Origin: Enorma phocaeensis
Lineage (GTDB): Bacteria; Actinomycetota; Coriobacteriia; Coriobacteriales; Coriobacteriaceae
DNA length: 64,000 nt
NCBI RefSeq assembly: GCF_016901575.1
Contig: NZ_JACJKQ010000003.1
Span: forward strand, 62,001-126,000
Direction: 5' to 3'
Shown: positions 2,597 through 5,202 of the stretch, piece after piece
How the letters are laid out: each line of letters opens with the position of its first letter
Position numbering within the stretch: position 1 is the stretch's first letter
Notes under the pieces: generated by a model
The model's input: only the letters and a program-made list of their open reading frames with translations
The model's database searches: none
What the model was told of the DNA's origin: nothing
Program-made: the position numbers and the translations under genes

Positions 2597-3379
2597 GTGA
2601 GCACCATCAAGCAGCAGAGTTCCCCTGTCGTCGCCCTCGCCGGGGCGCGCAAGGCGTTTGGAGACAACGAGGTGTTGCGCGGCGTCTCGCTTTCCGTCGA
2701 CCCCGGTGAGGTCGTCGCCGTCATCGGGCCTTCCGGCGGCGGAAAGTCGACGCTGCTCCGTTGCCTCACCCTGCTTGAGACGCTCGACGCCGGCTCGCTG
2801 AGCTATGGCGAGCTCTCGGTCGCGCGCGACGAGGGCGGAAAGACCCACTACGTAAAAGGCCCCGAGCTCAAGCGGGCGCGCGAGCACTTTGGCCTCGTCT
2901 TTCAGAACTACAACCTGTTCCCCCACATGACCGTCATGCAAAACATCACCGATGCGCCGGTGCGCGTGCAGAAGCGGCAACGCGCAGAGGTCGAGCTCGA
3001 GGCGCAGGCGCTCGTCGCCAAGATGGGGCTCGAGGGGTGCGAGAACAAGGTGCCCTGCCAGCTCTCCGGCGGCCAGCAGCAGCGCGTGAGCATCGCCCGC
3101 GCCCTCGCCATGAATCCCGAGGTGCTCTACTTTGACGAGCCCACGAGCGCGCTCGACCCCGAGCTCACCGCCGAGGTGCTGCGCGTCATCAAGGCGCTCG
3201 CCGCCGAGAACATGACCATGGTCATCGTGACCCACGAGATGGGCTTCGCGCGCGAGGTCGCCGACCGCGTACTCTTCATGGATGGCGGCGTCATCGTGGA
3301 AGAGGGTCCGGCGGAGCAGGTCATCGACCATCCCCGCGAGGCGCGCACCCGCGCCTTCCTCTCGCATCTCAGCGAGTAG
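2597..3379 (+). CDS. Amino acid ABC transporter ATP-binding protein
   Basis: This 260-residue ATPase energises the importer encoded just upstream. It shows Walker A (GPSGGGKST), Q-loop (FQNYNLFPH), ABC signature (LSGGQQQR), Walker B ([12 protein letters not shown]) and the switch histidine ([10 protein letters not shown]), in the order and spacing of the GlnQ/HisP family. The start is a GTG with GAGGAG about 8 bases upstream. An insert after the Walker A helix ([18 protein letters not shown]) is longer than in most GlnQ proteins. It is the last gene of the unit and is convergent with the AlbA_2 gene at 3444; I see no strong terminator in the 64 bases between them. Confidence 0.93.
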
Positions 3380-3443
3380 GCAGGCCGCCCAACAGACAGC
3401 GGCGAATAGGCGACAAATCCAAAAGTGATCCGCTCGCCCACCG

Positions 3444-4925
3444 TTACCTGCTGCGCGACACCTGCAGCTTGCTGCGCGATTGCCCCGCTACCGTCACGCG
3501 CTCGAGCCTTCTGGACGACACCATCGCCTCGACGGCGTCCGACAGGCGTTTCGTGATGCCTTTATAGCCCAGGGCATGTGCGAGCTCGGTCATGGAAAGC
3601 GGCTCCCCTGCTCGAGCGAGCGTATCCACAAGCTTTTGCTCGTACGCCTCGGCCCTCTTCTGAGCCGCATCGTTACGAATGAATGCGGGATGCACCGGCA
3701 GCGTCACGGATAAGAATCCCCTCGCCTCGTCCATCTCGAACGCTGGCTCCGGCGAGCCGTTGGCCGCAAGCGCCGCGAACACCGCGGGATAGCCTGTGTT
3801 TCTCCCCTCAACCAAACGCAGCTCTTTGAGAAAGTCCCCGATGCGACGGTTGCGGTATACGCGCGCACGGAACCTATGCTGCCGAATGTCCTCGTCCGTG
3901 ATGCTGCGGTCAAACCCAGGAAAGCTCGTCACTTCGAGACTCGCCGGCGTCACGCGCACCACAATGGGCTCGTTCACCTGATACGAGCGATGGTAGACCG
4001 CATTGGAAAGAATCTCTTCGACCGCCTTCATGGGATAGTTGTACACCACATCCGATTCCGCACGATGTGCTTCCTTGAACGTCTTTCGCTTGATCACATA
4101 GCTTTCCAGATAGCCCAAAGCGTCACGCAGCTGTCTCTGAATTGGACCGGTAAAGACCATCTCGGTCATCCCGTCACCAGTCGGATCGGGCATGTCCACT
4201 ACCTCGATGCGGGCGTATCGGAAGAAACGCTCGGGATGCTCACAAAACATGAGGATTCCGACGTTGCGCGGATGCCTGTTCTCTGGCGGCCCCGACAATA
4301 GCTGCAAGTCATCGGCGAGCTCCTCGACGCTTATTGCCGGACGTTCGCCCAGCGCGCTCCCGACGGCACGCACGTGCTCGCGCATGATGCCAAGGTCAAG
4401 ATCGTCGATGGTGGCAAGTAGGTTTGGCCGGTCGTCAAAGGGGATGTCTGATGACACGTAGAATAGCTCGCGCTCCTCTTGCGGAGACGCGACGAGCGTG
4501 CTGCTGAACTTTCTGATGTAGTAGCGCTTGTCCGCTGCATTCTTTGCAAGCACGTCGCGCGGCGCCTTGTAGGGGCGCCCAAACCCTGCGGGCACCCAAA
4601 TCACGATAAGGTACGCCCCTTGGAACTCTACGGGCTCCACGATGGGATTGTAGAGCGGCTCGATGGTGCGGCACATCCCGACAAGCCGCTTGAGAATCCC
4701 GTCGACTTCGGACTGCTTGATACCTTTGGGAGGAAGGACAGGCATGCCGTCCCGCTCTTCGATACCGATGACGATATATCCACCGCCTATGTTATCGATG
4801 TCGTTGGCAAACGCACAAATCGTATGAATGATGGGATTGGGATTGAACCCCGTCTTGAACTCGACGCGCGTCGATTCGACCGTGCGCAGGTTTACTAGGT
4901 CGCCGAGGTTAATGGGGATGGACAT
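3444..4925 (-). CDS. Schlafen/AlbA_2-type ATP-binding transcriptional regulator
   Basis: This 493-residue protein has an N-terminal AlbA_2 (Schlafen-like) domain, about residues 5-130, with ESTRVEFKTGF and the GGGYIVIGIEE strand. A GHKL-like ATP-binding half follows (EILSNAVYHRSY as N-box, EGRNTGYP as glycine motif), and residues about 420-493 form a C-terminal winged helix (MTELAHALGYKGITKRLSDAVEAMV). This is the layout of proteins often annotated as RecG-related putative regulators. The ATG at 4925 is preceded by AGGAGG; the open frame continues upstream only because it reads through the operator array at 4967-5047. The likely role is a DNA-binding regulator that controls its own promoter. 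Its other targets are unknown. Confidence 0.85.
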   Translation of the reverse strand: MSIPINLGDLVNLRTVESTRVEFKTGFNPNPIIHTICAFANDIDNIGGGYIVIGIEERDGMPVLPPKGIKQSEVDGILKRLVGMCRTIEPLYNPIVEPVEFQGAYLIVIWVPAGFGRPYKAPRDVLAKNAADKRYYIRKFSSTLVASPQEERELFYVSSDIPFDDRPNLLATIDDLDLGIMREHVRAVGSALGERPAISVEELADDLQLLSGPPENRHPRNVGILMFCEHPERFFRYARIEVVDMPDPTGDGMTEMVFTGPIQRQLRDALGYLESYVIKRKTFKEAHRAESDVVYNYPMKAVEEILSNAVYHRSYQVNEPIVVRVTPASLEVTSFPGFDRSITDEDIRQHRFRARVYRNRRIGDFLKELRLVEGRNTGYPAVFAALAANGSPEPAFEMDEARGFLSVTLPVHPAFIRNDAAQKRAEAYEQKLVDTLARAGEPLSMTELAHALGYKGITKRLSDAVEAMVSSRRLERVTVAGQSRSKLQVSRSR

Positions 4926-4966
4926 AGGACCTCCTACCTGCATGAATATGCCTTCACTCAGCAAAT

Positions 4967-5047
4967 TCGATAACTCGATAGTACATTTGTCGAGTACTCG
5001 ACGCAAGTTTTGTCGAGTACTCGACAAGATGGATGTCGAGTTATCGA
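4967..5047. promoter_or_regulatory. Array of four TCGA-N4-TCGA palindromes at exact 23-bp spacing
   Basis: Cores lie at 4967-4978 (TCGATAACTCGA), 4990-5001 and 5013-5024 (both TCGAGTACTCGA, inside perfect GTCGAGTACTCGAC) and 5036-5047 (TCGAGTTATCGA). Their centres are 23 bp apart each time, and the outer two are reverse complements of each other, so the whole array is a mirror about position 5007. It surrounds the promoter of the AlbA_2 gene, which makes autoregulation likely. Confidence 0.85.
4978..5006 (-). promoter_or_regulatory. Promoter of the AlbA_2 regulator gene
   Basis: On the reverse strand TTGCGT (5001-5006) and TACTAT (4978-4983) are separated by exactly 17 bp. The second palindrome of the operator array fills the spacer and the first overlaps the -10 end. 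Transcription would start about 45 bases before the ATG at 4925. Confidence 0.65.
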
Positions 5048-5060
5048 GTTTTGAAGCGAA

Positions 5061-5089
5061 GGGGGCACGGCCGTTGAAGCCGTGCCCCC
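5061..5089 (-). terminator. Terminator of the fused ABC transporter gene
   Basis: An 11-bp perfect GC stem (GGGGGCACGGC and complement) with a 7-base loop lies 114 bases after the stop at 5203, before the operator array of the next gene. The U-tract on the reverse strand is weak and interrupted. Confidence 0.55.
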
Positions 5090-5202
5090 ACATCATTCAT
5101 GGCGGGTTTTCATGTGCCGCACGTCGCCCCAAAAGCGAAGCCCCAACAGGTGAAGCGGCGCCGGCGCCGGGGCGGCAACATCGGGCGCTCAAAGAGGTGG
5201 AG

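What the first reader, a model, noticed from the sequence alone, without database searches (positions are those of the whole stretch)
4925..5050. Four palindromes at exact 23-bp spacing around the promoter of an AlbA_2/Schlafen regulator gene
Seen directly: TCGA-N4-TCGA cores centred at 4972.5, 4995.5, 5018.5 and 5041.5, with the array mirror-symmetric about 5007. The promoter TTGCGT-17-TACTAT lies within it, with one palindrome exactly in the spacer. The gene product combines AlbA_2, a GHKL-like ATP-binding half and a winged helix. Inference: an oligomer binds cooperatively on one face and shuts off its own gene, possibly released by a nucleotide or nucleic acid signal. AlbA_2-type regulators are abundant and barely characterised, so a defined operator would be valuable.
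Basis: partly seen in the sequence, partly recalled or inferred. Interest (0 to 1): 0.72.

Follow-up and report, generated by a model that had tools for sequence, protein, structure and literature searches.

The report
Self-operator array of a Schlafen-like gene
A gut bacterium's Schlafen/AlbA_2-type gene carries around its own promoter a precise row of repeated DNA half-sites that is kept, with changing letters but fixed spacing, in front of the same gene in bacteria of several phyla, so it is very likely the switch through which this uncharacterised protein controls its own gene.

Summary
The array is not chance. It recurs upstream of 31 of about 36 close orthologues (mostly 55-77% identity; Coriobacteriia, Clostridia, Erysipelotrichales, Treponema, Riflebacteria), although their neighbouring genes differ.

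TCGA is self-complementary. In orthologues whose half-site is asymmetric (TCTAG, TCGCA, GCGCA), and from flanking bases elsewhere, the order reads R R | F R | F R | F F. The outer sites are direct repeats. The shared minimum, R-FR-FR-F, is three divergent inverted repeats (about 15 bp apart) at 23-bp steps. The -35 box sits inside the array in 28 of 32 cases, mostly at fixed registers. In its own genome the array is unique.

Best reading: the operator through which the protein's C-terminal winged helix shuts off its own promoter. Binding and repression are inferred, not shown. Operator letters switch about seven times on the tree; only the protein's C-terminal part co-varies with them (p about 0.01), with too few independent switches for proof. 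"One face" is not supported (23 bp = 2.2 turns).

Unexpected: five related genomes keep a gene-less array as a perfect hairpin between convergent genes.

The parts
3444..4925 (-). AlbA_2 / HATPase_c_4 / winged-helix gene, 493 aa (P0001)
   Evidence: Pfam PF04326 at 17-142 and PF13749 at 320-408; AlphaFold model pLDDT 86 with winged helix at about 419-489; closest solved fold 3lmm Z 20.6, winged helix like MarR and Z-alpha domains
4965..5049 (.). Operator array, gene orientation: Ra Rb | F1 R1 | F2 R2 | F3 F4, half-site F = TGTCGAG
5012..5025 (.). Inner palindrome 1 (F1R1), GTCGAGTACTCGAC
4989..5002 (.). Inner palindrome 2 (F2R2), GTCGAGTACTCGAC, between the -35 and -10 boxes
5033..5048 (-). 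Distal outer site Ra Rb: direct repeat ACTCGATA/ACTCGACA
   Evidence: orientation agrees with asymmetric orthologues
4966..4981 (-). Proximal outer site F3 F4: direct repeat TATCGAG/TTATCGAA
4977..5005 (-). Likely promoter TTGCGT-17-TACTAT; the same pair of boxes occurs in orthologue L007
   Evidence: sequence, promoter scoring of orthologues
5063..5091 (-). G+C-rich inverted repeat GGGGGCACGGC...GCCGTGCCCCC between macB and the array, probably the macB terminator
   Evidence: seen directly in the sequence; not tested further

Best explanation
The array is a multi-site operator bound by the C-terminal winged helix of the AlbA_2/HATPase_c_4 protein encoded just downstream. Half-sites (RTCGAG in this species) are arranged as three tandem divergent inverted repeats (R then F, about 15 bp between centres) at 23-bp steps, with a further half-site at each end. 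Dimers, or a chain of dimers winding round the DNA, would cover the -35 and -10 boxes and exclude RNA polymerase, so the gene limits its own expression until an unknown signal releases it. Shown here: array, conservation, register with the promoter, uniqueness in the genome, and a loose link to the protein's C-terminal region. Inferred: binding, repression rather than activation, signal.
For: Array with fixed layout upstream of 31 of about 36 orthologues, spread over several phyla, with no recurrent neighbouring gene among 23 loci apart from two near-identical Treponema and isolated pairwise matches, so gene and array are inherited together. All half-sites of one array switch letters together (TCGAG, TCTAG, TCGAA, TCGCA, GCGCA), 7 changes on the tree. 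-35 box inside the array footprint in 28 of 32. Only the C-terminal part of the protein tracks the half-site letters after correcting for overall divergence: winged helix r 0.23, p 0.014, linker r 0.22, p 0.009; AlbA_2, middle and HATPase_c_4 not significant. Residue 446 (T against S/N) matches the fifth base (G against A) in 32 of 32. No other array in the genome and one other exact palindrome.
Against: No binding data. The residue-446 match rests on only two independent changes (sign test p 0.5), and the predicted recognition turn alone is not significant (p 0.18). Five relatives keep an array without any such gene. The array also folds as a strong RNA hairpin.
Confidence: 0.78

Rival explanations
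1. The array works as RNA: its mirror symmetry makes a long hairpin (attenuator, or bidirectional terminator for macB), and protein binding is secondary.
For: Window array folds at -46.6 kcal/mol, z -9.3; five gene-less arrays between convergent macB and ydjC form perfect 16-20 bp stems, several next to T runs.
Against: In gene-linked arrays the centre pairing between the two inner sites is lost in 13 of the 16 arrays whose centres are not self-symmetric. The promoter lies inside the array, so much of it is upstream of the expected transcript. Half-site letters switch in concert.
Confidence: 0.1
2. The array is the operator of a different trans-acting factor, and the AlbA_2 protein is only its target.
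For: Gene-less arrays exist in genomes without an orthologue.
Against: The array accompanies this gene in several phyla without any other conserved neighbour; operator classes co-vary with this protein's C-terminal part only.
Confidence: 0.07
3. The arrays are ends or recombination sites of a mobile unit that carries the gene.
For: L007 and L018 have an array on both sides of the gene; the gene-less L003 site equals L007 minus one array plus the gene.
Against: Most orthologues have an array on the promoter side only; array position is tied to promoter and start codon; no recombinase was seen next to it. Ordinary recombination between two direct array copies would also delete the gene.
Confidence: 0.05

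Closest known systems
TrlG of Photorhabdus laumondii (PMC7554251)
   Same: AlbA_2 (14-128) plus HATPase_c_4 (298-365); temperature-tolerant mutants map in it, several with premature stops
   Different: Part of a three-gene operon with trlR and trlF, and the paper's text has no mention of palindromes; our gene stands alone. Homology was not tested residue by residue
RptR of E. coli (PMC12255303)
   Same: Repressor of its own promoter through several phased repeats that overlap the promoter boxes, each with a short palindrome
   Different: A small single-domain four-helix protein, three 9-bp direct repeats, controls a defence island; ours is 493 aa, three domains, 8 half-sites with alternating 8/15-bp spacing, single gene
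DIP2311 of Corynebacterium diphtheriae (PDB 3lmm)
   Same: Best solved match to the model, Z 20.6 over 343 residues, rmsd 14.2 because domains are placed differently
   Different: Uncharacterised; no operator known to me
Schlafen and SAMD9 N-terminal domains (PDB 7cux, 9o0d, 7ksp)
   Same: AlbA_2 fold, Z 8.9-11.8; E17-x4-E22 and E57 resemble the spacing of the SLFN13 triad E205/E210/D248 (PMC5862951)
   Different: Eukaryotic, no winged-helix operator; nuclease activity of the bacterial protein untested

Membership tests
SLFN_AlbA_2 / HATPase_c_4 regulators (COG2865-like) | AlbA_2 domain | tested here: met
   PF04326 E 1.8e-15, cut-off passed; 26 of 26 aligned members
SLFN_AlbA_2 / HATPase_c_4 regulators (COG2865-like) | HATPase_c_4 domain | tested here: met
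   PF13749 E 1.8e-9; 26 of 26
SLFN_AlbA_2 / HATPase_c_4 regulators (COG2865-like) | C-terminal winged helix | tested here: met
   Model residues 419-489, Z about 9-10 to MarR-type and Z-alpha domains; Pfam HTH matches only weak
SLFN_AlbA_2 / HATPase_c_4 regulators (COG2865-like) | ATP or nucleotide binding | not testable with these tools
   -
Autorepressor with operator array | Sites conserved upstream of orthologues, in fixed spacing | tested here: met
   31 of about 36; steps of 22-24 bp
Autorepressor with operator array | Sites overlap the promoter | tested here: met
   28 of 32; promoters are predicted, not mapped
Autorepressor with operator array | Operator letters co-evolve with the DNA-binding domain | tested here: inconclusive
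   Partial Mantel p 0.014 for the winged helix and 0.009 for the adjacent linker; only two independent switches for residue 446
Autorepressor with operator array | Protein binds and represses | not testable with these tools
   -
Intrinsic terminator | Conserved pairing across the hairpin | tested here: not met
   Gene-linked arrays: centre pairing absent in 13 of 16 informative cases. Gene-less arrays do keep it
RptR | Small single-domain four-helix protein | tested here: not met
   493 aa with three domains
Schlafen-type RNase | Three acidic active-site residues | tested here: inconclusive
   E17 invariant, E22 and E57 at least 90%; no structural superposition of these residues was made

The most novel reading that the evidence does not exclude
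A one-gene, self-contained module: a Schlafen-like nucleic-acid effector fused to its own repressor domain, held off by its own operator array, and spread between phyla of gut bacteria without partners. Such a gene would act as a stress or phage alarm whose protein releases its promoter and acts on RNA when triggered.
Probability: 0.2. Interest if true: 0.75.

Novelty: new variant of a known kind. Interest (0 to 1): 0.52.

Why it matters
Bacterial AlbA_2/HATPase_c_4 proteins are common and almost uncharacterised, and I found no described operator in the papers searched. This gives a defined binding-site layout, natural variants with at least five half-site specificities, a candidate specificity residue (446), and ready-made cross-swap tests. 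Weaker evidence suggests that distant members carry private repeat arrays too (15 of 39 upstream regions significant against 11 of 137 control regions), so promoter repeats may be a general handle on this family.

Tried and rejected
Viral contigs: no relative confirmed. Plasmids and phages: only distant relatives, below 45% identity. NCBIfam: no family. PADLOC: only matches over part of Argonaute-associated models through shared domains, not taken as a defence assignment. Arrays matching the pattern in G188 and G210 (L107, L109) carry a different motif, and the L107 one lies near a transposase-like reading frame; set aside as unrelated. A nine-residue sliding window over the whole protein did not single out the winged helix, and the predicted recognition turn alone is not significant. 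My first symmetry-centre calculation was faulty and is not used.

Full report
Observation. The expected number of such four-fold arrays in the window is about 5e-12. In whole genomes of the family the two-site form of the pattern occurs in 8 of 67, and the reversed-pattern control never occurs.

The gene. The 493-residue product has Pfam AlbA_2 (17-142) and HATPase_c_4 (320-408), which all 26 aligned relatives share. AlphaFold (pLDDT 86) gives a winged helix at about 419-489. The best solved match is 3lmm (Z 20.6); the winged helix resembles MarR and Z-alpha domains, and the AlbA_2 part resembles the SAMD9 tRNase and SLFN5 domains.

Conservation. 44 relatives were fetched, and more from genome searches. 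Of 36 loci inspected in detail, window included and mostly at 55% identity or more, 31 gave a usable two-site core at 22-24 bp. They come from Coriobacteriia, Clostridia, Erysipelotrichales, Treponema and a Riflebacteria bin. The five left out are a copy with Ns in the array (L012), truncated or degraded genes (L040, L068) and two weaker arrays (L050, L102). Among 23 loci no neighbouring gene family recurs beyond isolated pairs, apart from two near-identical Treponema. Gene and array therefore travel together.

Anatomy. Because TCGA is its own reverse complement, half-site orientation cannot be read from the core alone. It can be read from arrays built on TCTAG, TCGCA or GCGCA, and from flanking bases. 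The outer positions then prove to be direct repeats: Rb in 26 arrays and Ra in 16 point one way (3 Ra opposite), F3 in 20 and F4 in 13 point the other way (none opposite). The full order is R R | F R | F R | F F, with centres spaced alternately 8 and about 15 bp. Several arrays lack the outermost half-sites and keep R-FR-FR-F, which is three divergent inverted repeats in tandem. I therefore favour three R-F units rather than four palindromes as the binding units; this is inference. A 23-bp step is 2.19 turns, so the sites wind round the helix and do not lie on one face.

Promoter. The best sigma-70-like promoter has its -35 box inside the array footprint in 28 of 32 orthologues, mostly at +19 to +22 or +32 to +34 from the start of the first F, often with TCGACA or TTGTCG of a half-site serving as the -35 box. 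These promoters are predicted, not mapped.

Specificity. Half-site classes change about 7 times on a tree built without the winged helix. With overall protein distance removed, half-site distance follows the winged helix (r 0.23, p 0.014) and the linker before it (r 0.22, p 0.009), but not AlbA_2, the middle or HATPase_c_4. The best of 345 variable columns is residue 446, at the start of the second helix of the winged helix: T with a fifth base G, S or N with A, in 32 of 32 (one of the N rows, L095, reads T or A at that base depending on the half-site). This is only two independent switches, so it is a lead, not proof.

One target. In the window's genome the array is unique, and only one further exact GTCGAGNNCTCGAC exists; it falls where several long reading frames overlap. 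The protein therefore probably has its own promoter as its sole or main target.

Gene-less arrays. Five genomes of a sister genus carry R R F R F R between convergent macB and ydjC, with no relative of the protein at E 1e-40. L007 has the gene at that place with an array on both sides, and the L003 site equals L007 minus gene and one array. Recombination between direct copies explains this simply. The solitary arrays keep perfect hairpins of 16-20 bp, including variants changed on both sides (GAAC/GTTC), so they may now serve as bidirectional terminators. In gene-linked arrays that pairing is not kept in 13 of 16 informative cases, which argues against an RNA role there.

Wider family. Distant relatives (below 52% identity) show other repeats at their promoters, for example AGTCGTGAGTT direct repeats (L097-L100) and TTAACCTCACTTC mirror repeats (L077, L078). 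As a group 15 of 39 are significant against 11 of 137 control upstream regions. Several Bacteroidales relatives with a different C-terminus show none.

Literature. Full-text searches found no operator for an AlbA_2 regulator; the library lacks most subscription journals. TrlG (PMC7554251) has the same two Pfam domains and limits growth at high temperature; RptR (PMC12255303) is a mechanistic analogue with an unrelated protein.

Verdict. A real, cross-phylum operator array of a self-regulating AlbA_2 gene: binding and repression likely but unproven, signal and output unknown. Interest is moderate, with a less certain but more exciting reading as a single-gene effector module.

Noticed in passing
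L001, L002, L003, L051, L052 (array at about locus 1470-1570): Gene-less arrays between convergent macB and ydjC in five genomes of one genus, kept as perfect hairpins; possible exapted bidirectional terminators.
   Followed up: partly
L007:3872-3961 and L007:5502-5568; L018 upstream and downstream of the gene: Arrays on both sides of the AlbA_2 gene in the same orientation, which would allow precise deletion by recombination.
   Followed up: partly
L005:1226-1465: Reading frame matching only the winged-helix end of the protein (50% identity), followed directly by an array: remnant of a lost gene.
   Followed up: no
L013 upstream and downstream of 2903-4369: Direct repeats of roughly 55 bp (GACAAAACGCATGATCGGC...) flank the array plus gene, suggesting insertion as a unit.
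   Followed up: no
L037 (upstream of 4001), L038, L031-L034: Short tandem repeats of about 6 bp (AAGGAT about 16 times, GCATAA/GCATAT, GTTAAA) just before distant AlbA_2 genes of archaea and spirochaetes.
   Followed up: partly
L097-L100, L073, L075, L077, L078, L103: Other repeat arrays, direct or mirror-symmetric, at promoters of distant AlbA_2 genes, each with its own motif.
   Followed up: partly
L107, L109 (about 1500-1535): TTCGACACTTCGA-type paired repeats at 23-bp spacing, near a transposase-like frame in L107; probably ends of an insertion element.
   Followed up: no
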